Assembly (NCBI GenBank): GCA_030765065.1
Contig: CM060990.1
Location: 494,564,190-494,628,189 of the forward strand
Length of the DNA stretch: 64,000 nt
Direction of reading: 5' to 3'
Source of the DNA: Deroplatys truncata
Taxonomy: Eukaryota > Arthropoda > Insecta > Mantodea > Mantidae
Position 1 is the first letter of the stretch. Each line of letters starts with the position of its first letter. Position numbers and translations under genes: made by a program. Under the pieces are notes generated by a model, which had not been told where the DNA came from, made no database searches, and saw nothing but the letters and a program-made list of their open reading frames with translations. This document shows positions 16,176-45,547 of the stretch, piece after piece.

Positions 16176-16189
16176 CCTGATAGTGTGAG

Positions 16190-23770: not shown

Positions 23771-24155
23771 TCTGAAAAAATTGCTTTGCTCGTGATTGTA
23801 GTGAAATGTAATGGCCTTTCTGTGGGAAGATGGAAAGGAAGAATTGAAAAGGGAATGAAAACCTGGAATAATGTAGTATACACATATATTTAAGTAAATA
23901 AGGGGGAAAATGTTCTACGTTACCTTTTAAGCTTTTACTTTTAAGTATTGTGATAATAGAGCTGGGGTTATACTTGGTGCAATGGGTGGTGGAGGCGGTG
24001 GTGGTGGTTGTGGTAGGCTTTGAATGACAACATCTGTCTGAATGAGAGTGTGAGAATACTTCTCTTGTTGGTGTGACATCATATAGTTAGCTATGGAACT
24101 AATTTAAATATGTTTTATACTATCAGACATCCTGTCTCTGAGTGTGACGTCATAG
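23771..24155 (+). other. Promoter-upstream block of element B, truncated
   Basis: Contains the GGT microsatellite (about 23985-24012) and the CRE-like TGACGTCAT near 24145, where homology to the promoter region stops abruptly and polymerase coding sequence begins. The TATA box and leader are deleted. Confidence 0.6.
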
Positions 24156-24827: not shown

Positions 24828-26151
24828 CGAGGTACGTCCAGAAAGTAAGTTCCGTTTGGTAATAAATTGTGTACAGATACAGAAAAATTATTTATGGCAC
24901 AAAATTCTACAACTCTTAAACTACTTTTCCACATAACTGCCGAAATTTCGCAGGCATTTGTCATAGCGTGGCACACGTTTTTGTATACCTTCTTCATAGA
25001 CGTTTGCCGCCTGTGTCTTCAACCAGTTGGAAACATTTTCTTTCAGTTCTTCGTCATTGTTGAAGTGTTGACCGCCAAGGAAAGACTTGAGATGTAAGAA
25101 CAGATGAAAGTCGCTAGGAGCGAGGTCAGGGCTGTACGGAGGATGGTCAAACACGTCCCAGCCAAATCCCTGTAGGAGGTTTTGCGTCACATTTGCAGTG
25201 TGTGGTCGTGCGTTGTCGTGAAGAAAAACAACACCTTTTGACAGCAATCCTCGGTGCTTATTCTGTATTGCGCGGAGCAATTTCCAAAGTGTCTCGCAAT
25301 AAACATCTGCTTTGATTGTTTGACCACGCGGTAAGAAATCAATGAGTAAGACGCCTTTCCAGCCCAGAACACTGTGCACATCATTTTTCGAGGTGTCAAG
25401 ATTTGTTTCGGCTTAACCTTTGCTGGGGATGAAGTGTGCCTCCGTTCCATTGATTGCCGCTTACTTTTAAGGATGTCGTAAGAAACCCAAGTTTCATCTC
25501 CTGTGACTATCTGTGTCAGAAATTCTTCGCCGCCTTCATCATAACGGGTCAAAAACTGAAGTGCACTACCCATCCGGTTTGTTTTGTGTTGCTCAGTAAG
25601 AATCTCTGGTACCCAACGAGAGCAAAGTTTACGAAATTTCAGTTTTTCGGTAACAATTTCATGAATTAGTGATCGTGAGATTTGGGGAAATTCCATAGCG
25701 AGAGCACTAATTGTAAACTTGCGGTTTTCTGGATCTTGTCATCGATCGCGTGAACCAGTTCGTCTGTAACCAAAGATGGACGCCCACTTCGTTCTTCATC
25801 GTGCACTTCACTACGTCCTTCATTGAACTGTTGGACCCATCTTCTCACCGTTGAATCACTCATCGCATTTTCTCCGTAAACTTCGCAAATTTGCCAATAA
25901 ATTTCAATTGGTTTCACTTTCCTAGCATTCAGAAAACGAATCACAGATCTGATTTCACAAGCGGCGGGATTTTCTATCAACACCGACATTGTAAACAAGC
26001 ACAACAAAGCGTACGTGGCTGACAGCGATCTCAAAATGGCGCACGTTTCTTCTCCTTGATACAGAGCGTCTACAGCGCATGTGCGGAACTGCGATCCCAG
26101 CGCTGCAGCGGAGAGAAATTGAAACGGATCTTACTTTCTGGACGTACCTCA
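24828..26151 (-). mobile_element. mariner-family transposon, 1,324 bp
   Basis: Ends are inverted: CGAGGTACGTCCAGAAAGTA at the left and its near-complement TACTTTCTGGACGTACCTCA at the right, about 30 bp of near-perfect match, flanked by TA dinucleotides at 24826-24827 and 26152-26153, the expected mariner target duplication. It lies inside the polymerase pseudogene of element B, so it came later. Transposase is on the minus strand. Confidence 0.93.
24921..26034 (-). pseudogene. mariner transposase (D,D34D type), frameshifted
   Basis: Would cut and paste the surrounding transposon. Three overlapping frames read leftward: 26034-25666, 25696-25187 and 25379-24921. The first holds the DNA-binding region with the second helix-turn-helix (STVRRWVQQFNEGRSEVHDEE, shortened here) and the linker SGRPS. 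The second holds VTGDETW with the first catalytic Asp. The third holds FLHDNARPH (second Asp) and YSPDLAPSDFHLF (third Asp), 34 residues apart as in mariner. Two frameshifts, near 25680 and 25380, inactivate it. All three catalytic aspartates remain readable. Confidence 0.92.
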
Positions 26152-26516
26152 TATATATGCTATTCAGCTCTAAACAAGAAGGAGCTTGGGAAATTTAAAG
26201 ATGAGCCTAATGGTAAAATCATCCAGCTCTTCGTCGGACTACCAGCTAAGATGTATGCACTAGATACCAATAGCTCAATAGTAAAAAAGATTAAGGGTGT
26301 AACACCTAGTGCTATTAAGCAGTACATTACTTTTGACAGCTATACAGACTATCTTAAAACCTGTGAAATCATCAGAAACGCCTATGAATCTAATCTTATC
26401 ACGAAAGCACGCTGTTAACACAGTGCAAGTGAATAAAATTACATTGAATCCCTTTGATAATAAAAGAGTTATTGCCGAGGATGGAATAGCTACCTATGCG
26501 TATGGACATTACAGTA

Positions 26517-26760
26517 ATATTTTGTAATATTTTATTTCATCATCATTATTACAATAATACAAATAAAGCTTACATCTAAAACTTTTGTCTAGTGCACCAG
26601 TTTTCTAGCTCCCCCATATTTAGCCCCTAGGCTGTATATATGGGATAAAGCTACTAGATACCATCTCTTCACATTTTCCAAACTATGCCCGTTCTGCTGT
26701 ACCTCTCTTAAGCTCCTCATCCACTTATCCCTTGTGTTGCCTAAAAATGTCCCCATCATT
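26517..26760 (-). mobile_element. 244-bp 5'-truncated retroposon insertion
   Basis: Flanked by a perfect 12-bp duplication GACATTACAGTA (26505-26516 and 26761-26772); the duplicated bases occur once in the other polymerase copies. Read on the minus strand, a short open frame with WYLVALSHIYSLGAK and ending RKLVH stop is followed by an A/T-rich tail with TGATGATGAAATAAAA. This is the pattern of a 3' LINE end inserted by target-primed reverse transcription. The LINE clade is not identified. Confidence 0.75.
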
Positions 26761-26772
26761 GACATTACAGTA

Positions 26773-27149
26773 TTACAAACGGTGCTTAAGAGAATGTGTG
26801 TCGAAGATGAAGATTTTCTCGCGAGTCTACAATCTTAAAAAATGAAATTTATCCTGTGCTGTGTATGCAATTAGCAGACGCCCCTGATGAAGAAAGAAAA
26901 ATAATAAAAACGATGGAAGGGAAGGTGTTAACCCTGCCATTAGGAGCAATCCTAGTGCTAGTCTCAAGCCTAAATAAAGGGGAGAGGCACCTACAACAAA
27001 CTAAAATAAGGTATGTTGACCCAAAGCTTTTCAATTTGTAAACCAATATGCAGTTTATTCCCCTCCGCCTCGCACACTAACTGTTTATCATATACGCTTT
27101 AGAAAAAAGTATATAAAGTGTTGTAACGTTGGATGAGAAATGTTTATAA
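26773..27149 (+). other. Conserved polymerase 3' flank, element B
   Basis: Same block as 14461-14834, carrying the micro-ORF at 26913-27041. Confidence 0.55.
26913..27041 (+). CDS. Possible 42-aa hydrophobic peptide (element B)
   Basis: MEGKVLTLPLGAILVLVSSL followed by a 22-residue polar tail. The hydrophobic core differs from element A by one V-to-L change. Possible micro-ORF; see 1645-1737. Confidence 0.2.
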   Translation: MEGKVLTLPLGAILVLVSSLNKGERHLQQTKIRYVDPKLFNL

Positions 27150-28935
27150 TCTAATTACTCTCTATATTACCATGAATATCTGTGATACTATCTTAATTAT
27201 GTGCTAAAATGACTTAAATACCTGTAATACTACCCGAATCATGTGAATTACCTTAAATAGTTCTGATAAAAATCCCTGCTCAAAATTAGCACGAGACCTG
27301 TGATACTCTCTGGTTTGCCCTAAATATCAATGATACTATTTGAATTACCGGTTAAAATGACTCAACTACTTGTGATACAACCTGAATCACCTTAAATAGC
27401 TGTGATACGAATCGTTGATCGAAATTATTACGAGTATCTGTGAAACTATGCTGATTACCCCAAATACTTACGATATTACCTGAACTTTCTGTGAAATACG
27501 AAGCTATGTTATAACCGACCCCTGGAACCTACCCTCCTGTAATGCTGGCTAAATTACTGTAATCCCCTATGATACTTGAATTATCCTAAATACCTACGAT
27601 ACTCTCTGAATTATCTGTGAAATACGAAACTATGCAATACCCCACCCCTGGAATCTATCCTCCGGTGATACTAGCTGAATTAGCTTAAATACCTACGATA
27701 CTAACTGAATTGCCTGTGAAATCATACACAGCTATGATGCAGTCAGCCTCCTGTGATACTAGCTGAATTAGCTTAAATGCCCCCGATACTAGCTATGAAA
27801 CGTATACAGCTATGATACGCCCTGCCCCTGGAATCTAGCCTCCTGTGGTATTAGCTGAGTTACTCTAAACACCTTGAATCAGTCCAGATACCTACGATAC
27901 TATCTGAATTACCTGTGAAATTATACGGAACTATATACACACTAAACCATGGAATCTGTCCTAACCTGTGATACTAGCTGAGTTACTCTAAGCACCTATG
28001 ATACTTGAATCAGCCCAAATACCTACGATACTATCTGAGTTCCCTGTGAAATCATACACAGCTATGATGCGGTCAGCCTCTGGAATATACCCTCGTGGTA
28101 TACTAGCTGAATTAGCTTAAATGCCAACGATGCTAGCTGAATTGCCTATGAAATCATATACAGCTATGATACGCCCTGCCCCTGGAATCTAGTCTCCTGT
28201 GATACTAGCTGAGTGACTCTAAACACATATGATACTTGAATTATCCTAAATAGCTGCGATACTATCTGAATTACCTGTGAAATCAAACGGAAGTATACAC
28301 ACGCCAAACCATGGAATCTGTTCTACCCTGTGATACTAGCTGAGTTACTCAAGCTTCTATGATACTTGAATCAGTCCAAATACCTACGATACTATCTGAG
28401 TTACCTGTGAAATCATACACAGCTATGATGCAGTCAGCCTCAGGAATATACCCTCCTGTGATGCTAGCTGAATTAGCTTAAATGTCCACGATGCTAGCTG
28501 AATTGTTTGTGAAATCATATACAGCGATGATACGCCATGCCCCATAAATCTAGCCTCCTGTGATACTAGCTGAGTGACTCTAAACACCTATGATACTTGA
28601 ATTATCCTAAATACCTGCGATGCTATCTAAATTACCTGTGAAATCAAACGGAACTATACACACGCTAAACCATGGAATCTATTCTGCCCTGTGATACTAG
28701 CTGAGTTACTCTAAGCATCTATAATACTTGAATCAGCTCAAATACCTACTATACTATCTGAATTACCTGTGAAACCATACACAGCTGTGATGCAGTCAGC
28801 CTCTGGAATATACCCTCCTGTGATACTGGATGAATTAGCTTAAATGCTCATGATACTAGCTGAATTGCCTGTGAAATCATATACAGCTATGATACGCCCT
28901 GCCCCTGGAATCTAGTCTCCTGTGATAGTAGCTGA
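27150..28935 (+). repeat. GATAC satellite of element B
   Basis: The longest of the satellite blocks, about 1.8 kb. From about 27720 onward it is organised in higher-order repeats of about 380 bp with the markers CCATGGAATCTGTYCT (27953, 28309, 28671) and ATACAGCTATGATACGCC. This amplification is not seen in elements A and C. Confidence 0.85.
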
Positions 28936-28939
28936 ATTA

Positions 28940-29400
28940 CTTACCTTTTAGCGTGAGTGGGTCACCTTTTTTGCGTAAGTGGGTCACCTTTTTGCGTGAG
29001 TGGGTCACCTTTTTATGTGAGTGTGTCACCTTTTTGCGTGAGTGGGTCACCTTTTTACGTGAGTAGGTCACCTTTTTGCGTGAGTGGGTCACCTTTTTAT
29101 ATGAGTGTGTCACCTTTTTGCGTGAGTGGGTCACCTTTTTACGTGTGTGGGTCATATTTTTCGTGAGTGGGTCACCTTTTTACATGAGTGTGTCACCTTT
29201 TTCCATTAGTGGGCCACCTTTTTACGTGGGTGGGTCACCTTTTTGGTTGAGTGGATCACCTTTTTGGTTGAGTGGGTCACCTTTTTGGTTGAGTGGGTCA
29301 CCTTTTTAGCCTGAGTGGATCACCTTTTTGTGTGAGTGGGTCACCTTTCTACGTGAGTGGGTCACCTTTTTGCGTGAATGGGTCACCGTTTTAGTGTGAG
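28940..29400 (+). repeat. 21-bp GGGTCACC array of element B
   Basis: About 21 copies of GTGAGTGGGTCACCTTTTTGC, period 21. The second half of the unit (TGCGTGAGT) differs from that in A and C (CCCTTTGT), while GGGTCACCTTTTT is kept. Confidence 0.9.
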
Positions 29401-29505
29401 CGGGCTAGTTGCTGGAGCTACCTAGAATTAGCGTTCTAACATTGACAGGAAACAGTTTTCCATGAAGTTCTCGTCTAAAGTCGCTTTCAAAGTCTAGCAC
29501 CTCCC
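29401..29505 (+). other. Conserved subterminal block of element B
   Basis: CTAGAATTAGCGTTCTAACA through AAGTCTAGCACCTCC, nearly the same as in A and C. Confidence 0.6.
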
Positions 29506-30785
29506 CTCCTATTCCCTATCTCTCCTGCATATAAGTCCATATTCCTGCTCCTTCACTATCAGTCTAGCCTAGCGGCTCTCTTCGTTTTTCTATACCTCTC
29601 ATACATGCAAACGCATACTCTATTCTCAACCTCTGTCTAGTCTACCATCTCTCCCCGCAATCCCTATCTTTTCCATATAAATGCATATCCTAGTCCTCAA
29701 CATGTCTGGCCTAGCACTTCTCCTCGTATGCCGTATCTCTCCCACATAAAGCACATTTCCCTCTCCTTCATCACTCTCTAGCATAGGATCTCTTCGTTTT
29801 CTCGTCTCTCCTTATAAATGCATACTCAAACCCTCATAGCCTAATACCTGTCCTCGGTTTGCTATCTCTCCCATATAAAAGCCATATTTTACCCTTCAAG
29901 TCCTGACTAGTCTAGCTCTTCCCCTCATATTCCCTATCTCTCCTGTGTATAAGCTCATATTTCTACTCCTTCAGTATCTGTCTAGCCTAACACCTCTCCT
30001 CCTGTTCCTATACCTCTCATACATATAAACACATACTCTACTCTCAACCTCTATCTAGTCTAGCACATCTCCCCATATCCGTTGCCTCTCATAAAGCGCA
30101 TTCTCCTCCTGCCCCCCTGTCTAGCTGAGGATCTCTCATTGGTTTTCTATACCTCTCATATAAATACCTTCTACCTTTAACATCTGTCTATCCTATCATA
30201 GGATCTCTCCGTTTTCTCGTCTCTCCTTATAAACGCATACTCAATCTCCTTAGCCTAATACCACTCCTTCTGTTCCTATACACCTATACCCCTCTACTCT
30301 AAACCTCTGGATGGTCTAGCACCTCTCCCCGTATCCCCTACCTCTCATAAAGCGCATTCCCTCCTGCCCCTCTATAGCTGAGTATCTCTGCTTGGTTTCC
30401 TATCTAACCTATATAAACCTACCTTTAACACTTGTCTATTCTAGCATGGGATCTCTCTCCGTTTTCTCGTCTCTCCTTGTAAACACAAACTAAAACTCTC
30501 CTAGCCTAATACCTCTCCTCGATTTGCTGTACCTCTCATATAAACCATACTCTACTCCTCAACCTCTGTCTAGCCTAACAACTCTCCACTATCTCTTCCA
30601 TACAAACGTACTTCCCTCCTTCAACCCTGTCTAGCCTAGTATCGGTCGTCGTATTCCCTATCTCTTCCATATAAATCCAATGTCCTCCTTGAAGGCTCCC
30701 TCAACTTAGCATCTGCCCTCGTTTTCCCTATCCTTTCCCATATATGCCCAAAAATCTTCGCTCGATCTCTCCTAAATAACCTACT
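29506..30785 (+). repeat. Terminal tandem zone and right terminus of element B
   Basis: About eighteen diverged copies of the 69-bp unit (CTGTCTAGCCTA... TCTCATATAAAC). The final 376 bp mirror the left terminus. Ends CCTACT at 30785. Confidence 0.85.
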
Positions 30786-31308: not shown

Positions 31309-31314
31309 TAAGTA
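31309..31314. other. Left target-site duplication of element C (TAAGTA)
   Basis: TAAGTA directly before GGTAGCTTATTTAGG; repeated at 45542-45547. Confidence 0.85.
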
Positions 31315-32335
31315 GGTAGCTTATTTAGGAGAGAGCTGGGCCACTTTTTTGCGTTTATATGGGAAAGGATAGGGAAAACGAGGGTGGATGCGGAGGAAAA
31401 TGCGTTTATATGGGCGAGATAGGGAATACGAGGACTGACGCTAGGCTAGACAGTGGTAGAAGGAGGGGGGAATGCGCTTTATATGAGACAGATAGGGAAT
31501 ACGTGGAGAGGTGCTAGGCTAGACAGAGGTTGTGAGTAGAGTATGCGTTTATATGTATGAGAGGTATAGGAGCAGGAGGAGAGGTGCTAGGCTAGACAGA
31601 GGTTGAGTAGAGTATGGGTTATATGAGGGAGGTAGGGAACAGAAGGAGAGGTGTTAGGCTAGCCAGAGGTTGAGGAGAAGAGTATGGTTTATATGGGAGA
31701 TATAGGAAAACGAGGAGTGGTGTTAGGCTAGACAGAGGTTGAGGAGTGGAGTATGGTTTATATGACAAGTATACGAGGAGAGGTATTAGGTTAGGAGAAT
31801 TGAGTATGTGTTTATAAGGAGATACGAAAAAACGGAGAGATCCTATTATAGGATAGACAGGTGTTAAAGGTAGAATGTGTTTTATATGAGCGGTATAGGA
31901 AACCAAAGAGAGATGCTCAGCTAGACAGGGGACAGGAGAGGAATGCACTTTATGAGAGGTAGGGGATACGGGGAGTGGTGTTAGGCTAGACAGAGGTTGA
32001 GAGTAGAGTATGCGTTTATATGTATGAGAAGCATAGGAACAGGAAGAGGGGTGTTAGGCTAGACACAGGTTGAGGAGTAGAGAAAGTTTATATAAGAGGT
32101 ATAGGAAAACGAGAAGAGGTGTTAGGCTAGACAAAGGTCGAGGAGTAGAGTATGGTTTATATGAGAGGTACAGGGAAACGAGGAGAGGAGTTAGGCTAGA
32201 CAGAGGTCGAGGAGTAGAGTATGGTTTATATGAGAGGTATAGGGAAACGAGGACAGTCGGTAGGCTAGACAGATAGTGAAGCAGTAGGAATATGGACTTA
32301 TATACAGGAGAGATAGGGAATAGGAGGAGAGGTGC
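31315..32335 (-). repeat. Left terminal tandem zone of element C
   Basis: Units of about 69 bp with GAGAGGTGTTAGGCTAGACA and TATGGTTTATATGAGAGG; mirror of 44585-45541. Each unit carries a TTTATAT (TATA-like) sequence. Apparent Arg-rich or Pro/Leu-rich frames in both strands are by-products. Confidence 0.88.
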
Positions 32336-32435
32336 TAGACCTTGAAAGCGACTTTAGACGTGAACTTCGTGGAAAACTGTTTCATGTCAATGTTAGAGCG
32401 CTAATTCTAGACATGCCCATCACGTAACCCATTCA
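32336..32435 (-). other. Conserved subterminal block of element C, left
   Basis: Inverted form: TTAGAGCGCTAATTCTAGAC and ATGCCCATCACGTAACCC. AGCGCT makes a small perfect palindrome here, where element A has AGCGTT. Confidence 0.6.
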
Positions 32436-32840
32436 GGGAAAAGGCGACTCGCTCAGGGAAAAAGGTGACTGCTCAGGGAAAAAGATGACATGCAACGGGA
32501 AAAAGGTGACCAACAAAGGGAAAAAGGTGACCCGCAAAGGGAAAAACGTGACCCACAAAGGGAAAAAGGTGTCCCGCAAAGGGAAAAGGTGACACGCAAA
32601 GGCAAAAGGTGACCCACAAAGGGAAAAAGGTGACCCATAAAGGGAAAAAGGTGACCCACAAAGGGAAAAAGGTGACCCACACAGGGAAAAAGGTGACCCA
32701 CAAAGGGAAAAAGGTGACCCACTCAAGGGAAAAAGGTGACCCACACAGGGAAAAAGGTGACCCGCGCAGGGAAAAAAGGTGAAACACAAAGGGAAAAGGG
32801 TAGGGAAACGGTGACCCTCTCACGGGAAAAGCTAACCCAC
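32436..32840 (-). repeat. 21-bp GGGTCACC array, left arm of element C
   Basis: About nineteen copies of AAAGGTGACCCACAAAGGGA (minus form GGGTCACCTTTTTCCCTTTG). Long frames in all three minus-strand phases are explained by the 21-bp period. Confidence 0.9.
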
Positions 32841-32849
32841 TCACACTAA

Positions 32850-33715
32850 CAGGTAAGTAATTCAGTTAGTATCACAGGGTAGGACAGATCCCGGGAAGTG
32901 GATATAGCATAGTTCCGTATGATGTTACAGGTAATTCAGGGAGTATCGCAGGTATTTAGGATAATTCAAGTAACATAGGTGATTAGAGTCACTCAGCTAG
33001 TATCACAGGAGGCTAGTTTCCAGGGGCAGGACGTATCATAGCTGCATATTTTTCACAGGCAATTCAGCTAGTATCGGGGGCATTTAAGCTAATTCAGCTT
33101 GTATTTCAAGAGGCTGACTGCATCATAGCAGTGTATGATTTCACAAGTAATTCAGTTAGTATCGTAGATATTTAGGCTAATTCATCTAGTATCACAGGAG
33201 GATAGATTCCAGGAGTTGGATATAGCATAGTTTCATATTTCACAGGTAATTCAAAGGGTATCGTAGGTATTTAGGATAATTCAAGTAACATAGGTGTTTA
33301 GAGTAATTAAGCAAGCATTACAGGAGGGTAGGTTCCAGGGGTTGGTTATAACGTAGTTTCGTATTTTACAGATAGTTACGGTAATATCGTAAGTATTTGG
33401 GTAATCAGCATAGTTTCACAGATGCTCGTGATAATTTCGATCAGAGATTTGTATCACAGCTATTTAAGGTAAATGCAGGTGATTCAGGTTGTATCAATGG
33501 TATTTGAGTCATTTTAACAGGTAATTCATCTAGTATCACTGATATTTAGGGCAAACCAGATAGTATCACAGGTGCTCGTGCTAATTTAGAGCAGGAATTC
33601 GTATCAGAGCTAGTTAAGGTAATTTCACATGATTCGAATAGTATCACAGGTATTTAAGTCATTTTAACAGGCAATTCAACTAGTATCACAGGTATTCATG
33701 GCAATATAGAGAGTA
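32850..33715 (-). repeat. GATAC satellite, left arm of element C
   Basis: Inverted counterpart of 43241-44085, same 30-42 bp units. Confidence 0.85.
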
Positions 33716-34081
33716 ATTAGATTATAAACATTTCTCATCCAACGTTACAACAATTTATATACTTTTCTGGACCCTACAAACTTTTATATGTTAAACAGTT
33801 ATTGTACGATGCGGAGAGGGATAAACTGCATATTGGTTCACAAATTGAAAAGCTTTGCGTCAACATACCTATATTTTAGTTCGTTGTAGGTGTCTCTCCC
33901 CTTTTATCTAGGCTTGAGACTAGCACTAGGATTGCTCCTAATGGCAGGGTTACCACCTTCCCTTCGATCTTCTTCTTTCTTCATTAGGCGTCTGCTAGTT
34001 GCATACACAGCACACGGATAAACTTCATTTTTTAAAGATTGTAGACTCACGAAAAAATCTTCATCTTCGACTTAAACCCTC
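33716..34081 (-). other. Conserved polymerase 3' flank, element C left arm
   Basis: Same block as elsewhere. The ATG of the conserved micro-ORF is ATC here, so the peptide frame has no start in this copy. Confidence 0.55.
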
Positions 34082-37000
34082 TTAAGCACTGCTTGTAATA
34101 CTGTAATGTCCATACGCATAGGTAGTTATTCCATCTTCGGCAATAACTCTTTTATCATCAAAGGGATTCAATGTAATTTTATTCACTTGTACTGTGGTAA
34201 CAGCGTGCTTTCGTGATAGGATTAGATTCATGGGCGTTCTGATGATTTCGCAGGTTTTAAGACAGTCTGTATAGCTGTCAAATGTAATGTACTGCTTAAT
34301 AGCGCTACGTTTTATACCTTTAATCTTTTTTATCATCGAACCTTAAATATCTAAGGCATACATCTTAGGTCGTAGTCCAACAAAGCATAGGATGATTTTG
34401 CTATTATCCTCATCTTTAAATTTTCCAAGCACCTTGTTGTTTAGAGCTGAATGGAATATATGGTCGACAGGGTAATCAGCTGTATCCAGGTGCTCAAGGA
34501 AACGTAGCTTATCCTGGTACACATCTTCAGTTGTAACACAATGAATGAATCAGTGTCCATATACATAAGCTTCAGGTTTTCAGCCCCGTAATAAGGCAAC
34601 AACACATCGTAATGATAGTGATACATTAATGTCTTGCAGATGTCCAACACACTCATGCCAATGTATATAGGCTTGTTGAATACAATCTGACGAGAAACCA
34701 TATGTACCGCAGCTAGATTAGCAGCATATATCGTCCTGTCGATGAACGTAGGCTTAGCGATCAGCTTCTCTAGAGTTTTTTCATTGGTCACCAGTCGTAT
34801 ATCCATACGGTTACGCAGGTTCTCCATAGTTTTTCCAAACATGGCGTTGCTAAAAAGCTTGTAGAGATCCTTCTCGAAATCATTTGCAGCTTGCTGTCGT
34901 AGTCTGTTGTTAAATTCCACATAAGGTTTTAACCACCGAGACTGTGGGAATTGTAGCACACGATGGATTTTTGTTAGTCGTAGTCCATGATCAAGAGCTT
35001 GCTTTAAAGCCATGTAACTCACTACATACTTCTTTCGAGGTCCAAGATGGGGTATCAGTTTCTTTGTAGATGCTTCCAATGGTTTCACACAGTCAGGCAG
35101 GAAAGGTAGATCGTTGTGTAGATCGTTAAGTTCAGCAGGATACTCGATGTCGACTTCTAATATGCACCCATGAGGATCATTTTCTTGTAGTGTTTCTAAG
35201 TTGATTTCTTCAGGTGACACCCACCTAAATCCACCAAAAGGAAGGGCGTGACACAATGCCCACCCTTATTGGTTATTAGCGTCCTCGTATGTGATAAATT
35301 GGGTTGGTCTCGACGGATCAAACAAATCCATATAAGAGTTATTAGCCTCAGCATACCGATAGGAAACTTGGCATAAACCTCCTCTTATACCTGATTCCAC
35401 CATGAGTAGTTGATCATAATCTTGTAACAGCTCCAGCTTAATTCCAGTATACAGTAACATAGCTCCCATGTAAGTCCTGGAGAGGTAAAATAATGGGCAG
35501 GATCAACCTTGTGTGTTTTAAGGGTTTGCTCTCTGAACGTCTCAAAGACTTCAGCTAGGAGTAGTACATCTGAGGTTAAGTAGAGATCGCTGTACTAGCC
35601 TAGGTTTCTCACATTAAACAGCTCCCTACATTTCTAGCATGATTGTAGCCAGTATCAGTAATTTCTTCTTCATTTAATCTATTGTAGAAGGAGTCCTTAG
35701 GAGGCAAGCAGGTCTCGTTCAGGGCATCCCATGACGTAAGAAAATCATATGGAAACACACCCTTACGGGTCATCAACTTCAATTTGTCTTCTCCAAAGTA
35801 CTTTAGTGTTTCAGGATATGAGGCTAGATTTTTTACCAACTTATCCAAGCTTGTACTGAGGAATCGGAAGCTGTCCACAAATCGAAGCTTTATATCTCAT
35901 ACATACTTGGTGAATGAGATATAGCTTTCGTCAGAGTTAGGAATTACCTCCACACGTTCACTTGTACAACCCAGCTCCTTAACAATGAAATGAGAGTCAT
36001 ATCCCTAAGGTTATGCATGAAGACTGGTATATATTTAGGTGTTTAACAGGCTAAATTACATTCATTATAAAGATTTCTACGATATTCACCGCTGATGTGA
36101 TCATGGTCGCGTACTTTATAGTTCTCATTTGTAAAGGGTTTTCCACACAAGTAGCATGTCGTAGAAAACTCAAAATCGTTTTTCAGTTGATCCGTAAGTT
36201 TCAGAGGCTTAGCAGATTTGTATATGTCATCAATCATTTTTGCAAGAGATGTCAGGTACAGGATAAACTTCTGAACAGCATCAGCACCACGATACACATA
36301 GGGTTGCTTAGGAAGACCAGTTTCGAGATGTTTAACACTGGATGTAGGCTTCACGTAAATACAGAAGCTCATTAGTGTGTGTTCTTGATAAGGGGTTGTA
36401 TAGGAAGTTTTAGGATTGGGTATACACGTATGGCATGGAGTGAGAATACTCTCAAAATCCGCATAGATGACATAAGGTACATTCAGCATCCTCTAAACAT
36501 TTTTAAACTGTACAATTGCTTTCTCCTTGGTAGGCATAACTACCCTTGCAACACCATGTTGATTACAGATGGACACATGTTCTTGCAGTTTTTCCTGTCC
36601 ACTTCTTCCATATCGATCCTCAAAATGTGTAAAGCAGCGCTTACAAGTATAAACCCGTCCATTATGGTAGGTTTATCTGACGTCGAACGAGTTTCTCAAA
36701 ATTCTTTATATATACGTACTGATGTTTTCCACTACTCTCATTCAATAGTAGCAGGTCACAGTGTTCAGGTAATTCAATGTCCGCAACCTTTATCGGATAC
36801 ACTTCATGCTTCTCATCTACCCCGAAAACGTTGATAGACATCTTGTTACGCTTTTCAAATTTAGGTATTTGAGAAAGTGGGGTAGGATAGGAAACACAGC
36901 TGAAGTCGTACTTATCTTGAAGCTGCTTGTATTTGCTGACGCGTTGAGGCTTGCTGCTCACGAATTTGGCCAGTATAGAGTACATGAAACATTTCTCATC

Positions 37001-37728
37001 ACTAAAGTTCTGAATGTTTATACATGCCTTCCTTGCTTCAACAGATGACGGTAGTGGTATGTAGCTACTTCCTCGCAACGGATTGTACTTGTTGATACGA
37101 AGTCGAAGTCCTTCCACTACAAGCAAAGCCCAGTTGCTACCCTTAAGCTGAGACTCCTCCATTTCAGTCACCAATTTCTTGAATTTCACTTCCATCGTTG
37201 ACTCCAGATCAGCTTCCAGGAAAACAGCTTGATTCCGTGTTTTAAATGTTTTGTCACAGGTTTCTCCAATACTGTTCACAAATCGACACTCAACCAGCAG
37301 ATTAATTTAACACTCTTATGAATACCAAGCTCTTTATGCACAGCCTGGATTATGCGTTGTTTTGCTTCATGCAGATACATATTTAGGTCCTTAGCTGATT
37401 CGCATCGTATAAAATACGATTTCAATCGTCCTTCGAATGAAGTTTCGTATTCTTTCATATCACAGTCCTCCATTGTTGACAGTAACTGATGTTTAGTTGG
37501 CTCCAATCTTCTTTTCTTCTGAGGTCTGTTTATTTCACATACATCCTCGTGTCGCTGACCCTTATAACCATCTTTGAAGGTTACATTACAATGCATGCAT
37601 TTGAAGAGCTTCTTACAAGTCATCTCGTGTCTTCTCTTGTCATAACCTCGGAGGAACTTCTTCCCACATTTTCCGCAAGCGTATCCAGTAGCGCTTGGAA
37701 TAATATCCTTAATCGCTGAGTTATTCAT
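34082..37728 (-). pseudogene. polB: Protein-primed-type B-family DNA polymerase, element C left copy (broken)
   Basis: About 1,215 codons of homology from the ATG at 37728 to the stop at 34082 (end TYAYGHYSITSSA). Zinc knuckles CGKCGKKFLRGY and CMHCNVTFKDGY are intact, then KKRRLE. The first frame stops after SVDL at 37276 and the protein resumes in another frame (NSIGETCDKTF). Later breaks: near 36662, a stop just before the RMLN segment at about 36492, a stop after NECNLAC at 36043, and frame changes near 35880, 35610, 35470, 35260 and 34440. Exonuclease I (YADFES), the HNH-like segment (CYLCGKPF...RDHDHISGEY), motif A region, motif B (LFSNAMFG) and motif C (YMDTDSF) can still be read. Residues shared only with its twin (MFGKTMEN, ASTKKLIPHL) show the arms of C are closest to each other. 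Confidence 0.9.
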
Positions 37729-37884
37729 CTTTATTCTTGATGTAATAACGTATTAATCACTGATCAATGAAATGTAGACCTCTTCACGTTGATACCACTT
37801 TAGAACGCTGATTATTCTTGGAGAGAACACGATGTTAACACCTCACGACTAATTAGCACAATGAAGTCCAATGCCCTAGATCAC

Positions 37885-37915
37885 CATATTTATAGAGGGA
37901 GCACGAGCCTTTTAG
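37885..37915 (-). promoter_or_regulatory. TATA promoter of element C left polymerase
   Basis: Minus strand CTATAAATATGG at about 37886-37897, about 160 bases before the ATG at 37728, same as in element A. Confidence 0.55.
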
Positions 37916-38500
37916 ATCAAACATAAACTCGCTCCATAACCAGCTGTATATGATCGCTCAACATGTATTAACTCCAGCCATATAACCTCACGCCCAGAAG
38001 CAGGATGTTTATGACGTCACACCCAGAGACAGGATGTCTGGCAGCATCAAACACTTTTAAACTCGTCTCATAACTACCTGCTCATGCTGTCACAACAGCA
38101 AGAGAAGTATTCTCACACGCTCATTCAGGCATATATTTCAAATTCAAAGCCTACCACCGCCACTACCACCACCACCATCACCACCTATTGTACCAAGGTT
38201 AACTCCAGCTCTATTATCACAATACTTAAAGTAAAAGCTTAAAAGGTAACGTAGAAGATTTTCCCCCTTATTTAGTTAAATGTCTGTATATACTACATTA
38301 TCTCATGTTTTCATTCCCTTTTCAATTCTTCCTTTCCATCTTCTTTCAGAAAGACCATTACATTTTATACAATCACGAGCATAGCAATTTTCCCAGAGTT
38401 ACACAGATTCTGAGCTTCTAGAATAGAACTCGGTAATACTTTTAATAAATGTATTTTTAGTAATTTAGCTCCCCCGCATCAGCATCAGGCATTTAATCTT
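37916..38500 (-). other. Promoter-upstream block of element C left arm
   Basis: Contains TGACGTCA near 38013, ACAGGATGT boxes and the CCA microsatellite (about 38150-38188). No gene. Confidence 0.45.
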
Positions 38501-39131
38501 TAGTCGAACCTGATATGATCCATAGGCTCAAAAATATATGAAATTGCCCTTAGAGATTCGATCTGAGTACTTTAAAGTAATTATTGTCATGATAACGATA
38601 TTTAGGAACAAGGTAATCTGTTTACTTTATACTTAACGTGTCTATCTGAATTAAATTACGAGTTATTAAATTTGCAAGTAAATTTCATTGAATCGGTATT
38701 CGAACCCAGAACACCAGAAACAAAATAATTTATAATATTAGTCTGACATGTTAAACAAAGCTGTATGCAGCTACATCATCGATCTAAGTGATATATTCTA
38801 GAGTACAGAGGAAAATTAAGGAAGCCATTAAAAGATGGGGATTCGAAACAAGCACAACTGATTAACAATTATATACAGCGTTGATTACACATTGTAGGAG
38901 CTATCAATCATGCTTTAGTCCACTCCTCTACCTCATTTAGTTCCCGAGATAATGGATATTTAAGAATTAAGGATCGAACCCAGGACGTCAGGTATCCAAC
39001 TAGACATTCGTAAGGTACTACCTAATAACATAAATGCAATTAAGTTTATTTGGCGTCTTTATCTTAAGTCGTTTAGGAATTATTAAATTTATAAGTAAAT
39101 TACATTTTATCGGTATTCGAACCCAGAACAC
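38501..39131 (-). repeat. Element C tRNA B-box-like array and asymmetric centre
   Basis: Five to six motifs (TTCGAACCC type near 38697, 38837, 38970 and 39114) at 135-145 bp spacing. At about 39131 the array, in a flavour-3 unit ending CCCAGAACACCAG, abuts GGTGTTAACATCGTGTTCTC, which is the leader just upstream of the right polymerase. So the matching array, microsatellite and TATA box of the right arm have been deleted. Confidence 0.75.
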
Positions 39132-39247
39132 CAGGTGTTAACATCGTGTTCTCTCCAACAATAATTAGCTTTCTAAAGTGTTATCAAGGTGAAGAGGTCT
39201 ACATTTCCTTTAAGAAGGATTAATACGTTATTACATCAAGAATAAAG

Positions 39248-42200
39248 ATGAATAACTCAGCGTATAAGGATATTATTCCAAGCGCTACTGGATACGCTTG
39301 CGGAAAATGTGGGAAGAAGTTCCTCCGAGGTTATGACAAGAGAAGACACGAGATGACTTGTAAGAAGCTCTTCAAATGCATGCATTGTAATGTAACCTTC
39401 AAAGATGTTTATAAGGGTCAGCGACACGAGGATGTATGTGAAATAAACAGACCTCAGAAGAAAAGAAGATTGGAGCCAACTAAACATCAGTTACTGTCAA
39501 CAATGGAGGACTGTGATATGAAAGAATACGAAACTTCATTCGAAGGACGATTGAAATCGTATTTTATACGATGTGAATCACCTAAGGACCTGAATATGTA
39601 TCTGCATGAGGCAAAACAACGCATAATTCAGGCTGTGCATAAAGAGCTTAGCATTTACAAGAGTGTTAAAATTAATCTGCTGGCTGAGTGTCGATTTATT
39701 AACAGTATTGGAGAAACCTGTGACAAAACATTTAAAACAACGAATCATCCTGTTTTCCTAGAAACAGATCTGGACTCAACACGGGAAGCGAAATTCAAGA
39801 AATCGGTGACTGAAATGGAGGAGTCTCAGCTTAAGGGTAGCAACTGGGCTTTGCTTGCAGTGGAAGGACTTCGACTTCGTATCAACAAGTACAATCCGTT
39901 GCGAGGAAGTAGCTACATACCACTACCGTCATCTGTTGAAGCAAGGAAGGCATGTATAAACATTCAGAACTTTAGTGATGAGAAATGTTTCATGTACTCT
40001 ATACTGGCCAAATTCGTGAGCAGCAAGCCTTAACGCGTCAGCAAATACAAGCAGCTTCAAGATAAGTACGACTTCAGCTGTGTTCTTACCCTACTCCACT
40101 TTCTCAAATATCTAAATTTGAGAAGCTTAACAAGATGTCTATAAAAGTTTTCGGGTTGGATGAGAAGCACGAAGTGTATCCGATAAAGGTTGTTGACATT
40201 AAACTAGCTGAACACTGTGACCTGCTACTATTGATTCACAGTAGTGGAAAACATCACTACGTATATATAAAGAATTTTGAGAAACTCATTCGACGCCAGA
40301 AAACTAAATGTAATGGACATGTTTATACTTGTAAGCGCTGCTTTACACATTTTGATGATCGATATTGACGAAGTGGACAGGAAAAACTGCAAGAACATGT
40401 GTCCATCTGTAATCAACATGGTGTTGCAAGGGTAGTTATTCCTACCAAGGAGAAAGCAATTGTACAGTTTAAAAATGTTGAGAGGATGCTGAAAGCACCT
40501 TATGTCATCTATGCGGAATTTGAGAGTATTCTCACTCCATGCCATACGTGTATACCCAATCCTGAAACTTCCTATACAACTCCTTATCAAGAACACACAC
40601 TAATGAGCTTCTGTGTTTACGTGAAGCCTACATCCAGTGTTGAACATCTCGAAACTGGTTTTCCTAAGACACCCTATGTGTATCGTGGTGCTGATGCTGC
40701 TCAGAAGTTTATGCTGTACCTGACATCTCTTGCAAAAATGATTGATGACATATACAATTCTGCTAAGCCTCTGAAACTTACGGATCAACAGCAAAACGAT
40801 TTTGAGTTTTCTACGACATGCTACTTGTGTGGAAAACCTTTTACAGAAGAGAACTATAAAGTACACGACCATGATCACATCAGCGGTGAATATCATGGAA
40901 GACTTCATAATGAGTGTAATTTAGCCTGTAAAACACCTAAATATATCCCAGTCTTCATGCATAACCTTAGCGGATATGACTCTCATTTCATTGTTAAGGA
41001 GCTGGGTTGTACAAGTGAACGTGTGGAGGTAATTCCTAACTCTGAAGAAATTTATATCTCATTCACCAAGTATGTAGGAGATATAAAGCTTCGATTTGTG
41101 GACAGCTTCCGATTCCTCAGTACAAGCTTGGATAAGTTGGTAAAAAATCTAACCTCATATCCTGAAACCCTGAAGTACTTTGGAGAAGACAAATTGAAGT
41201 TGATGACCCGTAAGGGTGAATTTCCATATGATTTTGTTACGTCATGGGATGCCCTGAACGAGACCTGCTTGCCTCCTAAGGACTCCTTCTACAATAGATT
41301 AAATGAAGAAGAAATTACTGATAGTGACTACGATCATGCTAGAAATGTATGGGAGCTGTTTAATGTGAGAAACCTGGGAGAGTACAGCGATCTCTACTTA
41401 ACCTCAGATGTACTACTCCTAGCTGATGTCTTTGAGACATTCAGAGAGCAAACCTTCAAAACACACAAAGTTGATCCTGCCCATTATTTTACCTCTCCAG
41501 GACTTACATGGGACGCTATGTTACTGTATACTGGAATTACGCTGGAGCTGTTACAAGATTATGATCAACTACTCATGGTGGAATCAGGTATAAGAGGAGG
41601 TTTATGCCAAGTTTCCTATCGGTATGCTGAGGCTAATAACACTTATATGGATAAGTTTGATTCGTCGAGACCAACACAAGTTATCACATACGAGGACGCT
41701 AATAACCAATATGGGTGGCAATGTGTCACGCCCTTCCTTTTGGTGGATTTAGGAGGGTGTCACCTGAAGAAATCAACTTAGAAACACTACAAGAAGATGA
41801 TCCTCATGGGTGCATATTAGAAGTCGACATCGAGTATCCTGCTGAACTTCACGATCTACACAACGATCTACCTTTCCTGCCTGACTGTGTGAAACCATTG
41901 GAAGCATCTACAAAGAAACTGATACCCCATCTTGGACCTCGAAAGAAGTATGTAGTGCGTTACATGGCTTTGAAGCAAGCTCTTGATCATGGACTACGAC
42001 GAACAAAAATCCATCGTGTGCTACAACTCCGAAGGTCTCGGTGGTTAAAACCTTATGTGGAATTTAACAACAGACTACGACAGCAAGCTGCAAATGATTT
42101 CGAGAAGGATCTCTACAAGCTTTTAACAACGCCATGTTTGGAAAAACTATGGAGAACCTGCGTAACCGTATGGATATACGACTGGTGACCAATGAAAGAA

Positions 42201-42854
42201 CTCTAGAGAAGCTGATCGCTAAGCCTACGTTTATAGACAGGACGATATATGCTGATAATCTAGCTGCTGTACATATGGTCTCTCGTCAGATTGTATTCAA
42301 CAATCCCATATACATTGGCATGAGTGTGTTGGACATCTCCAAGACATTAATGTATCACTATCATTACGATGTGTTGTTGCCCTATTACGGAGCTGAAACA
42401 CTGGAGCTTATGTATATGGACACTGATTCATTCATTGTGTTACAACTGAAGATGTGTACCAGGATAAGCTACGTTTCCTTGAGCATCTGGATACAGCTGA
42501 TTACCCTGTCGACCATATATGCCATTCAGCTCTAAACAACAAGGTGCTTGGAAAATTTATAAATGAGGCTAAGATGTATGCCTTAGATATTCAAGTTTCG
42601 ATGATAAAAAAGATTAAAGGTACAAAACGTAGCGCTATTAAGCAGTACATTAATTTGACAGCTATACAGACTGTCTTAAAACCTGCGAAATCATCAGAAC
42701 GCCCATGAATCTAATCCTATCACGAAAGCACGCTGTTACCACAGTACAGGTGAATAAAATTACATTGAATCCCTTTGATGATAAAGGAGTTATTGCCGAA
42801 GATAGAATAACTATCTATGCGTATGGACATTACAGTATTACAAGCAGTGCTTAA
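39248..42854 (+). pseudogene. polB: Protein-primed-type B-family DNA polymerase, element C right copy (broken)
   Basis: About 1,200 codons. This is the only copy in which the zinc-knuckle part and the next domain are in one frame across the run near 39668 (GTTAAAATT; the other three have one A fewer). The first 261 codons are open, ending at a CAA-to-TAA stop at 40031. Further breaks: frameshift near 40085, Gly-to-TGA at about 40367, open 460-codon stretch to 41781 with a G lost near 41718, and frame changes near 42122, 42440, 42570 and 42650, with a small deletion in the last. Exonuclease I reads YAEFES here: the metal-binding Asp is Glu. Exonuclease II NLSGYDSHF, III YLTSDVLLLADVF, motif A, motif B (NAMFGKTMEN-like across a break) and motif C YMDTDSF are recognisable. 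TATA box and upstream region are missing. Confidence 0.9.
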
Positions 42855-43240
42855 GAGAGTTTAAGTCGAAGATGAAGATTTTTTCGTGAGTCTGCAATCT
42901 TAACAAAATGAAGTTTATCCGTGTGCTGTGTATGCAACTAGCAGACGCCTGATGAAGAAAGAAGAAGATCGAAGGGAAGGTGGTAACCCTGCCATTGGGA
43001 GCAATCTAAGTGCTAGTCTCAAGCCTAGATAAAAGGGGAGAGACACCTACAACGAACTAAAATAAAGGTATGTTGACGCAAAGCTTTTCAATTTGTGAAC
43101 CAATATGCAGTTTATCCCTCTCCGCATCGTACAATAACTGTTTAACATATAAAAGTTTGTAGGGTCTAGAAAAGTATATAAATTGTTGTAAAGTTGGATG
43201 AGAAATGTTTATAATCTAATTACTCTCTATATTACCATGA
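42855..43240 (+). other. Conserved polymerase 3' flank, element C right arm
   Basis: Same block as 14461-14834; micro-ORF start is ATC as in the left arm. Confidence 0.55.
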
Positions 43241-44085
43241 GTACCTGTGATACTAGTTGAATTGCCTGTTAAAATGACTTAAATACCTGTGATACTACCC
43301 GAATCATGTGAAATTACCTTAACTAGCTCTGATACGAATTCCTGCTCTAAATTAGCACGAGCACATGTGATACTATCTGGTTTGCCCTAAATATCAGTGA
43401 TACCAGATGATTACCTGTTAAAATGACTCAAATACCATTGATACAACCTGAATCACCTGCATTTACCTTAAATAGCTGTGATACAAATCTCTGATCGAAA
43501 TTATCACGAGTATCTGTGAAACTATGCTGATTACCCAAATACTTACGATATTACCGTAACTATCTGTGAAATACGAAACTACGTTATAACCGACCCCTGG
43601 AACCTACCCTCCTTTAATGCTAGCTTAATTACTCTAAACACCTATGATACTTGAATTATGCTAAATACCTACGATACTACCTGAATTACCTGTGAAATAC
43701 GAAACTATGCTATATCCAACTCCTGGAATCTATCCTCCTGTGATACTAGATGAATTAGCCTAAATGTCTACGATACTAACTGAATTACTTGTGAAATCAT
43801 ACGCTGCTATGATGCAGTCAGCCTCTTGTAATACAAGCTGAATTAGCTTAAATGCCCCCCGATACTAGCTGAATTGCCTGTGAAAAATATGCAGCCATGA
43901 TACGTGCTGCCCCTGGAAACTAGCCTCCTGTGATACTAGCTGAGTGAGTCTAAACACCTATGTTAGTTGAATTATCCTAAATACCTACGATACTCTCTGA
44001 ATTACCTGTAACATCATACGGAACTATGCTATATCCGCTTCCCGGGATCTGTCCTACCCTGTGATACTAACTGAATTACTTACCC
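43241..44085 (+). repeat. GATAC satellite, right arm of element C
   Basis: Mirror of 32850-33715. Confidence 0.85.
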
Positions 44086-44089
44086 GTTA

Positions 44090-44484
44090 GTGTGAGTGGG
44101 TTAGCTTTTCCCGTGAGAGGGTCACCTTTTTCCTACCCTTTTCCCTTTGTGTGTCACCTTTTTTACCTGCGCGGGTCACCTTTTTCCCTGTGTGGGTCAC
44201 CTTTTTCCGTTTGTGGGTCACCTTTTTCCCTTTATGGGTCACCTTTTTCCCTTTGCGGGTCACCTTTTTCCCTTTTCGGGTCACCTTTTCGCGTTTATGG
44301 GTCACCTTTTTCCCTTTGTGGGTCACCTTTTTCCCTTTATGGGTTACCTTTTTCCCTTTGCGGGTCACCTTTTTCCCTTTGTGGGTCACCTTTTTCCCTT
44401 TGCGGATCACCTTTTTCCCTTTGTTGGTCACCTTTTTCCCGTTGCATGTCACCTTTTTCCCCGAGCGAGTCACCTTTTCTCCGA
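44090..44484 (+). repeat. 21-bp GGGTCACC array, right arm of element C
   Basis: About eighteen copies of GGGTCACCTTTTTCCCTTTG at 21-bp period; mirror of 32436-32840. Confidence 0.9.
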
Positions 44485-44590
44485 ATGGGTTACGTGATGG
44501 GCATGTCTAGAATTAGCGCTCTAACATTGACATGAAACAGTTTTCCACGAATTTCACGTCTAAAGTCGCTTTCAAGGTCTAGCACCTCCC
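44485..44590 (+). other. Conserved subterminal block of element C, right
   Basis: GGGTTACGTGATGGGCATG, TCTAGAATTAGCGCTCTAAC and CGCTTTCAAGGTCTAGCACC, as at the other three positions. Confidence 0.6.
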
Positions 44591-45541
44591 CCTCCTATTC
44601 CCTATCTCTCCTGTATATAAGTCCATATTCCTACTGCTTCACTATCTGTCTAGCCTACCGACTCTCCTCGTTTCCCTATACCTCTCATATAAACCATACT
44701 CTACTCCTCGACCTCTGTCTAGCCTAACACCTCTCCTCATTTTCCTATACCTCTCATATAAACTATACTCTACTCCTCAACCTCTGTCTAGCCTAACACC
44801 CCTCTTCCTGTTCCTATACTTCTCATACATATAAACGCATACTCTACTATCAACCTCTGTCTAGCCTAACACCACTCCCCGTATCCCCTACCTCTCATAA
44901 AGCGCATTCCTCTCCTGTCCCCTGTCTAGCTGAGCATCTCTCTTTGGTTTCCTATACCGCTCATATAAAACACTTTCTACCTTTAACACCTGTCTATCCT
45001 ATAATAGGATCTCTCCGTTTTTTCGTATCTCCTTATAAACACATACTCAATTCTCCTAACCTATTACCTCTCCTCGTTTTCCTATACTTCTCATATAAAC
45101 CATACTTCACTCCTCAACCTCTGTCTAGCCTAACACCTCTCCTCGTTTTCCTATATCTCCCATATAAACCATACTCTACTCCTCAACCTCTGGCTAGCCT
45201 AACACCTCTCCTTCTGTTCCCTACCTCTCTCATATAACCCATACTCTATTCAACCTCTGTCTAGCCTAGCACCTCTCCTCCTGCTCCTATACCTCTCATA
45301 CATATAAACGCATACTCTACTCTCAGCCTCTGTCTAGCCTAGCACCTCTCCACGTATTCCCTATCTGTCTCATATAAAGCGCATTCCCTCCTCCTTCTAC
45401 CACTGTCTAGCCTAGCGTCAGTCCTCGTATTCCCTATCTCGCCCATATAAACGCATTTTCCTCCGCATCCTCCCTCGTTTTACCTATCGTTTCCCATATA
45501 AACGCAAAAAAGTGTCCCAGCTCTCTCCAAAATAAGCTACT
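44591..45541 (+). repeat. Right terminal tandem zone of element C
   Basis: Units of 69 bp (for example CTCTGTCT starting at 44713 and 44782). Ends AGCTACT at 45541. Confidence 0.88.
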
Positions 45542-45547
45542 TAAGTA
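45542..45547. other. Right target-site duplication of element C (TAAGTA)
   Basis: Matches 31309-31314. Confidence 0.85.

What the first reader, a model, noticed from the sequence alone, without database searches (positions are those of the whole stretch)
31315..45541. Complete palindromic DNA element encoding only a protein-primed-type polymerase, in two divergent copies
The element has defined ends, a perfect TAAGTA 6-bp target duplication and 14.2 kb of inverted arms, yet the only recognisable gene is B-family DNA polymerase, present twice head-to-head. Classical Polintons have one polymerase plus integrase, ATPase, protease and capsid genes, and unique interiors. A polymerase-only palindrome suggests a self-copying replicon that dimerises through its centre, as linear replicons with hairpins can, and borrows integrase from a helper. 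I do not recall this architecture as a named class.
Basis: partly seen in the sequence, partly recalled or inferred. Interest (0 to 1): 0.88.

Follow-up and report, generated by a model that had tools for sequence, protein, structure and literature searches.

The report
Palindromic polymerase-only Polinton family in mantis
A praying-mantis genome carries a large family of jumping DNA elements that are near mirror images of themselves, with two facing-away copies of a virus-type DNA polymerase and no integration gene of their own; a virus-like element in the same genome has the same ends and could supply it.

Summary
31315-45541 is a complete insertion with TAAGTA target duplications and inverted arms of 6.4-6.5 kb around a 1,289-bp unpaired centre; its only recognised gene is a broken PolB, one per arm. 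It is an old copy of a large family in a 4.29-Gb mantis genome (COX1): one PolB 26-mer has 3,932 exact hits, and the first 100 form 45 head-to-head pairs. One copy (C1:18.3 Mb) is a 17.7-kb palindrome with 8.8-kb arms 99.94% identical, a 71-nt loop, an open 1,225-codon PolB in both arms and its own 6-bp duplication. In 15 of 15 elements sampled the two arms are each other's closest relatives, and a PolB deletion is mirrored in both arms of two independent copies: the palindrome is inherited and its arms evolve together. The loop matches the terminus of a second, integrase/capsid-bearing Polinton family; one member of that family wears the palindrome's outer ends and has its own duplication. 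Best reading: a Polinton reduced to its inverted repeats, copied by its own PolB through fold-back and integrated in trans. New variant of a known kind; not met in the held papers listed by my searches.

The parts
31309..31314 (.). left target-site duplication TAAGTA
   Evidence: sequence
45542..45547 (.). right target-site duplication TAAGTA
   Evidence: sequence
31315..45541 (.). element E2 (the finding): degraded palindromic PolB element
   Evidence: inverted repeats; family termini
31315..37843 (-). left arm of E2 (part with a partner in the right arm)
37844..39132 (.). unpaired centre of E2: inner part of the left arm; its partner and the central loop are missing
   Evidence: left arm reaches canonical arm position 543, right arm starts at 1793
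39133..45541 (+). right arm of E2
34082..37752 (-). PolB region of left arm, broken
   Evidence: ORFs; Pfam DNA_pol_B_2 1.5e-9
39224..42890 (+). PolB region of right arm, broken (3' edge approximate)
   Evidence: ORFs; Pfam DNA_pol_B_2 1.6e-15
31404..32338 (.). about 69-bp tandem repeats of the outer arm, left
   Evidence: TRF
44645..45457 (.). about 69-bp tandem repeats of the outer arm, right (two overlapping rows)
   Evidence: TRF
32455..32801 (.). 21-bp tandem array, left arm
   Evidence: TRF
44135..44461 (.). 21-bp tandem array, right arm
   Evidence: TRF
1..17036 (.). element E1: palindromic member; its left end is at G000:C16:494563482, 708 bp before the window; TSD GTAGCA
1955..4546 (-). 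E1 left-arm PolB, 863-codon open stretch
   Evidence: Pfam DNA_pol_B_2 1.9e-25
8402..8510 (+). relic of the helper-family terminus at the centre of E1 (edges approximate)
   Evidence: blastn core 8435-8488, 88.9%
22027..30785 (.). element E3: member with one PolB-side arm and the PolB deletion (canonical arm 1630 joined to 4488), interrupted by mariner-type ORFs; TSD TATATA

Best explanation
It is a Polinton (Maverick/adintovirus-like element) that has been reduced to its terminal inverted repeats. The repeats have grown until each holds a complete protein-primed-type PolB gene, and the core has shrunk to about 99 bp: a copy of the terminus of a second, integrase-bearing Polinton family. Shown on the copies read: ends, 6-bp duplications, a palindrome with a recurring centre, joint evolution of the two arms, purifying selection on PolB, a central relic of the helper terminus, and one capsid/integrase element with the same outer ends and its own duplication. 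Inferred: PolB copies the DNA from the ends by strand displacement; a single strand with one arm and the loop folds back on itself and re-makes the missing arm from the other, so the arms are equal at each insertion; an integrase from the helper family inserts the product.
For: Canonical copy L029/L030: arms 8.8 kb, 99.94% identical (5 differences), 71-nt loop, two open 1,225-codon PolB frames, TSD TACCTA. First 100 of 3,932 exact PolB 26-mer hits: 45 (-,+) pairs, 10 singles; 19 of the 45 spacings within 10,588-10,646 bp. Arm/centre junction 25-mer: 1,646 exact hits; the first 100 make 38 pairs, all 105-130 bp apart, and 24 singles. Loop 49-mer, up to 3 mismatches: 229+269 hits, reversed control 0/0. 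Arms are each other's best match in 15 of 15 elements compared and sisters in 15 of 15 in the tree, at most 4 in 1,000 label shuffles. Deletion of arm positions about 1630 to 4488-4524 mirrored in both arms of C1:31.25 Mb and C16:469.9 Mb. dN/dS 0.15-0.23 between open PolB frames of three elements; exonuclease and polymerase motifs present. TSD 6 of 6 in all 13 members with both ends read. Helper integrase family: 126 scored matches, many open over 309 codons; C16:237.6 Mb element with the same terminus, TSD AGCGTT, rve 2.7e-9, double jelly-roll 3.7e-73. Loop = helper terminus: first 85 of 99 bp align with it. No helper gene in 15 members by tblastn, while the same queries hit helper loci.
Against: Only one integrase/capsid element with the palindrome's ends was verified, and some of its frames look partial (jelly-roll match 15-240 of 316 positions, A32-like match 98-162 of 242 and under the cut-off), so it may itself be dead; a second candidate proved ordinary arm sequence. 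The six other integrase elements whose ends were seen have the other (B) ends, five clearly and L054 by position. Non-palindromic and lopsided copies with TSDs exist (L027, L028, C7:216.9 Mb; 10 of 55 groups are single), so the palindrome is not needed for insertion. PolB-deleted palindromes moved too, so own PolB is not needed either. No replication intermediate was seen; protein priming is inferred from family. No element with full arms and a full core was found, so the order of events is a guess. Pfam did not return DNA_pol_B_2 for the whole 1,225-aa protein, only for pieces of it and of relatives, and the PDB sequence searches gave no polymerase.
Confidence: 0.62

Rival explanations
1. Palindromes are made anew each time, as copy-back (defective-interfering-like) products of a longer, one-armed Polinton whose displaced strand snaps back at the hairpin formed by the 99-bp central relic.
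For: The relic is bounded by inverted 14-mers and can pair. A one-PolB copy with an open frame exists (L027). Centres vary a little (105-130 bp).
Against: No longer progenitor seen: none of the 38 junction pairs is wider than 130 bp start to start. The PolB-deleted arm is mirrored in two independent palindromes and shared with E3, as expected if palindromes are inherited. L027 joins a TIR to canonical inner sequence, as expected of a deletion derivative. The 24 unpaired junction hits and 10 single PolB hits were not read, so a progenitor could be among them.
Confidence: 0.2
2. Arms stay alike because of gene conversion between them in the chromosome after insertion, as in sex-chromosome palindromes; replication has nothing to do with it.
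For: Would also give sister arms.
Against: Diverged copies are not homogenised: E1 arms 98.7%, E2 arms 96.1% in the same PolB piece. Seven of the eight elements with the piece open in both arms have arms 99.93-100% identical, the eighth 99.53%; the relation is not strict, since e74.9 (99.93%) and e75.7 (99.87%) have one arm with many stops, as from a frameshift. Mirrored rearrangements recur at independent sites.
Confidence: 0.08
3. Two separate insertions in opposite orientation side by side, or an assembly artefact (fold-back reads).
For: Such artefacts exist in long-read data (general knowledge).
Against: One TSD around the whole; no outer terminus at the centre of the canonical copy (scan); recurring spacing at many loci; arms differing by up to 4%.
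Confidence: 0.02
4. The palindrome is simply a non-autonomous Polinton that needs the helper for everything; its PolB is a passenger.
For: PolB-deleted palindromes were also mobilised; six of ten helper loci show their own PolB-B.
Against: dN/dS 0.15-0.23 between elements, and 8 of 15 sampled elements keep the 1.5-kb PolB piece open in both arms.
Confidence: 0.15

Closest known systems
Polintons / Mavericks
   Same: 6-bp target duplication and AGTAG-starting inverted repeats (that these are usual for Polintons is recalled), viral-type PolB, size near the 15-20 kb given in PMC4028283 (passage read); one capsid/integrase element with the same outer ends in the same genome
   Different: No integrase, ATPase, protease or capsid gene found; no unique interior beyond the loop; PolB twice, inside the inverted repeats; near-perfect palindrome with a 71-nt loop in the canonical copy
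Adintoviruses (animal Polinton-like viruses)
   Same: PolB is of their kind: 46% identity to a protein named PolB of Ladona dragonfly adintovirus
   Different: Adintoviruses as defined in PMC11071296 (passages read) encode hexon and an integrase with chromodomain; neither was found in these elements
Bidnaviruses
   Same: Adintovirus-type PolB in a reduced genome, in some cases in up to twelve segments (PMC11071296, passage read)
   Different: Bidnaviruses unite PolB with parvovirus-like NS1 and capsid; no such gene was recognised here
Adenovirus incomplete genomes with inverted duplication of one end (recalled; a search gave listings only)
   Same: Fold-back copying of one end of a protein-primed linear genome into a palindrome
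   Different: Those are transient virion DNAs; this is a chromosomal lineage with many inherited copies
Teratorn (herpesvirus-piggyBac element)
   Same: Outer and 'internal' termini bounding long inverted repeats (PMC6431247, passage read)
   Different: Different virus and transposase; 41-182 kb with a large unique region

Membership tests
Polinton/Maverick | 6-bp target-site duplication | tested here: met
   13 of 13 members with both ends read, and the helper C16:237.6 Mb. Two further fetched members lacked a flank. Most were chosen for well-kept ends. That 6 bp is typical of Polintons is recalled.
Polinton/Maverick | terminal inverted repeats | tested here: met
   arms up to 8.8 kb (canonical) and 9.7 kb (C16:587.6 Mb); nearly the whole element in those. 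L028 showed no inverted block above the script's limits.
[quoted passage not shown]
   PF03175 1.6e-26 on residues 430-1225 of the open frame, exonuclease and polymerase motifs (motif names recalled); priming by protein not testable here, structure tool off
Polinton/Maverick | RVE integrase in the element | tested here: not met
   tblastn with two integrases against 15 members (12 fetched, 3 in the window): no match at 1e-3, while the same queries hit helper loci
Polinton/Maverick | FtsK/A32-like ATPase, cysteine protease, jelly-roll capsid | tested here: not met
   tblastn with helper and metagenomic capsid, ATPase and other frames against the same 15 members: none; ten further frames of members match no Pfam family at 0.01
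Non-autonomous derivative of a Polinton | same termini as an element that carries the missing integrase | tested here: met
   terminal 25-mer identical; terminal 226 bp 96% identical to L016, 87% to L030, 80% to L027; own TSD AGCGTT; one element only
Adintovirus | PolB with N-terminal OTU-like domain | not tested
   N-terminus shows C2H2-like/DUF7128 weak matches; no OTU test made
Adintovirus | hexon and integrase genes | tested here: not met
   not found in 15 members
Copy-back defective genome | made afresh from a longer parent | tested here: inconclusive
   recurring centre and mirrored deletion speak for inheritance; no full census

The most novel reading that the evidence does not exclude
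A split mobile virus: one part is a self-homogenising hairpin replicon that carries only the polymerase and can be rebuilt from one arm plus the loop; the other part carries capsid and integrase, has lost its own polymerase (as C16:237.6 Mb has) and wears the same outer ends so that the first part's polymerase copies it. Each supplies what the other lacks, and the palindrome is a way for a protein-primed replicon to survive incomplete copying.
Probability: 0.2. Interest if true: 0.93.

Novelty: new variant of a known kind. Interest (0 to 1): 0.8.

Why it matters
Polintons are thought to link transposons, plasmids and DNA viruses, but how they copy themselves is known mostly from models (recalled). 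A natural palindrome in many copies, with arms that are equal at insertion and then decay like LTRs, would give a read-out of fold-back copying by a protein-primed-type polymerase, a clock for each insertion, and a case in which polymerase and capsid/integrase functions sit on different elements with the same ends.

Tried and rejected
Close relatives of PolB in the viral collection: none with the single protein; the alignment gave two Polinton-like contigs (L051, L052), used as a source of integrase, ATPase and capsid queries. Adenovirus protease family PF00770 in the genome: no match, but its 14 controls were silent too, so it shows nothing. ATPase of L051 in the genome: no match, equally uninformative. 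PDB sequence search with PolB and with the PolB profile: mostly zinc fingers, no polymerase. A 31-mer meant to mark the joint between palindrome end and helper core proved to be a repeat unit of ordinary arms as well, so its 101+112 hits count nothing. First idea, independent copy-back at varying breakpoints, was given up as main reading when the modal spacing and the recurring loop appeared. A second helper with palindrome ends (C16:319.37 Mb) was looked for and not confirmed. L054, a helper with a PolB remnant, has B ends, so loss of PolB-B does not go with palindrome ends in general. An earlier count said 20 of 45 modal spacings; the list gives 19, used here.
Full report
What was checked. 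The stretch 31315-45541 has the duplication TAAGTA at 31309-31314 and 45542-45547 and inverted arms 31315-37843 / 39133-45541, 94-98% alike in most blocks, with 1,289 unpaired bases between them. The only gene recognised is PolB, once per arm, reading away from the centre and broken in both arms. Two more members lie in the window: E1, a palindrome with arms 95-97% alike over its long blocks, which starts 708 bp before the window and ends at 17036 (TSD GTAGCA), and E3, 22027-30785 (TSD TATATA).

How common it is. The assembly holding the window has 4.29 Gb in 818 contigs. The terminal 25-mer with up to three mismatches has 997 + 1,014 places, the reversed control none. A 26-mer at the 3' end of PolB has 1,973 + 1,959 exact places. 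The first 100 of these, all on contig C1 between 0.2 and 147 Mb, fall by left-to-right pairing into 45 (-,+) pairs and 10 singles; two singles have a same-strand neighbour within 25 kb. Nineteen of the 45 spacings lie between 10,588 and 10,646 bp; for a 5' 26-mer (1,569 + 1,592 places) the first 100 give 42 pairs and 16 singles, and 23 of the 42 spacings lie between 4,446 and 4,506 bp. If this part of C1 is representative, about 1,770 palindromes are present; that is an extrapolation from exact hits. COX1 of the assembly is closest to mantises (93% identity to Sceptuchus simplex, Prohierodula sp. and Statilia maculata; Prohierodula placed in Mantodea), so the host is most likely a mantis; the species was not determined.

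The canonical form. C1:18330977-18348665 (L029, L030) has arms of 8.8 kb with five differences, a 71-nt loop, an open 1,225-codon PolB frame in each arm and TSD TACCTA. PolB carries the exonuclease and polymerase motifs (motif assignment recalled), matches DNA_pol_B_2 over most of that model at 1.6e-26 when residues 430-1225 are scanned (the full-length scan did not return it), and differs between elements with dN/dS 0.15-0.23 (four open frames from three elements). Its named relatives are PolBs of insects and other animals: 52% in Halyomorpha, 46-56% in Rhodnius, 46% to a protein named as adintovirus PolB (best 120 of 2,444 listed).

Insertion. Of the 11 elements fetched first, chosen because both ends match the terminal 25-mer exactly or with one mismatch, nine could be checked and all nine have 6-of-6 duplications; two had a flank outside the fetched stretch. 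With the canonical copy and the three in the window that makes 13 of 13 members with both ends read. At C7:216.9 Mb two right termini lie 83 bp apart; the outer gives 6 of 6, the inner 5 of 6.

Gene content. Ten frames of the helper family and of a metagenomic Polinton-like contig (two integrases, two ATPase-like, capsid-like, protease-like and other frames) find nothing in 15 members by tblastn at 1e-3, while they hit helper loci. Ten further frames of members, some from the extra DNA of C16:587.6 Mb, match no Pfam family at 0.01.

Inheritance of the palindrome. For a 1.5-kb PolB piece I compared both arms of 15 elements (ten fetched for this, all with 3' spacings of 10,598-10,641 bp; the rest already held), plus three single arms. 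Arm-arm identity exceeded the best match to any other element in 15 of 15 (96.1-100% against 94.4-99.5%), and the arms were sisters in 15 of 15 in the tree, against at most 4 in 1,000 label shuffles; four of the 15 clades carry no support value. Eight of the 15 elements keep the piece open in both arms; E1 and E2, the most diverged, are broken. C1:31.25 Mb and C16:469.9 Mb lack arm positions from about 1630 to 4488-4524 (most of PolB) in both arms, in mirror image, and E3 has the same deletion. A change in one arm is therefore carried to the other before or at transposition, and palindromes without a full PolB have also moved.

The centre. The loop 49-mer has 229 + 269 places with up to three mismatches, control none. 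The arm/centre junction 25-mer has 815 + 831 exact places; the first 100 make 38 (+,-) pairs, 105-130 bp apart, and 24 singles; no pair encloses a larger core. The 99 bp at the centre of the canonical copy begin and end with AGTAGAAATAGAAT and its complement, and their first 85 bp align end to end with the terminus of a second Polinton family. A relic of the same terminus is at the centre of E1 (8402-8510) and of C16:587.6 Mb. Several copies, the one in the finding included, have lost part of the centre on one side.

The helper family. The integrase of a metagenomic Polinton-like contig (L051) finds 126 scored matches in the genome, out of 9,143 first-look candidates, many open over 309 codons (a lower bound). 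In the 10 loci cut out, six show a different PolB (PolB-B, 39% identical to PolB-A over its C-terminal part) beside the integrase, two keep only an about 89-codon remnant, one a short piece, one nothing within the 1.5 kb held. Ends were sought for nine of the ten: one, L062, has palindrome-type (P) ends; six have the other (B) ends, five clearly and L054 by position; in two the end lay outside the piece. The L062 element (C16:237599033-237615442) starts with the same 25-mer as the palindromes, shares 226 terminal bp at 96% with L016 (87% with L030), has inverted ends of about 1.2 kb plus a further 0.24-kb block at 97%, the B terminus directly inside the P end, integrase, a double-jelly-roll frame and other virus-like frames, no usable PolB found, and TSD AGCGTT. 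Some of its frames look partial. So an element with the palindrome's ends and an integrase gene has been inserted as a unit.

Mechanism. Shown on the copies read: a PolB-only palindrome that is inherited, kept symmetrical, and inserted with 6-bp duplications. Inferred: strand-displacement copying from the ends by PolB; fold-back of a strand at the loop, which rebuilds one arm from the other; integration by an integrase of the helper family. The likely history, arms growing outwards around a helper-type core that then collapsed to 99 bp, rests on the position of the B terminus in three kinds of element and is not proven.

Prior work. Searches of the held papers for Polinton or Maverick with palindrome, inverted duplication, non-autonomous or long inverted repeats (20 of 44 listed; 26: 1 of 1; 71: 2 of 2; 73: 14 of 14; 81: 12 of 25; 87: 2 of 2), for adintovirus (25 of 29), for adenovirus fold-back forms (12 of 30), for protein-primed palindromes (12 of 60) and for mantis genomes with Maverick (1 of 1) listed nothing that, by title and start of abstract, describes such an element. 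Only listings were seen for those; passages were read in PMC6431247, PMC11071296, PMC4028283 and PMC4642659. Unlisted hits were not looked at and most subscription papers are not held, so absence in print is not shown.

Verdict. A real and abundant architecture, within the Polinton world by ends, duplication and polymerase, but without the gene set and with a structure that I met in no paper listed.

Noticed in passing
window 22027-30785: Third member of the family, interrupted by mariner-type transposase frames (24921-26130).
   Followed up: partly
window 18526-20051 and 51074-51957: hAT transposase fragment (19515-20051 matches the hAT dimerisation domain) and a frame that reads like a LINE reverse transcriptase (not scanned).
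   Followed up: no
G000, many contigs: 99 COX1 matches, among them full-length copies inside large contigs: many mitochondrial insertions.
   Followed up: no
L018 7735-9907 and its mirror in L019: C16:587.6 Mb palindrome carries about 2.2 kb of extra, unidentified DNA in both arms (arms 99.3% alike over 9.66 kb), around a larger helper-end core.
   Followed up: partly
G000:C1:291345599-291350005: Cluster of six loop 49-mers within 4.4 kb, a local array of palindrome centres.
   Followed up: no
G000:C1:165350358, 166600435, 168822508 (5' PolB 26-mers): Palindromes with 2.8-4.5 kb more than usual between the two 5' PolB 26-mers; could hold core genes or other insertions.
   Followed up: no
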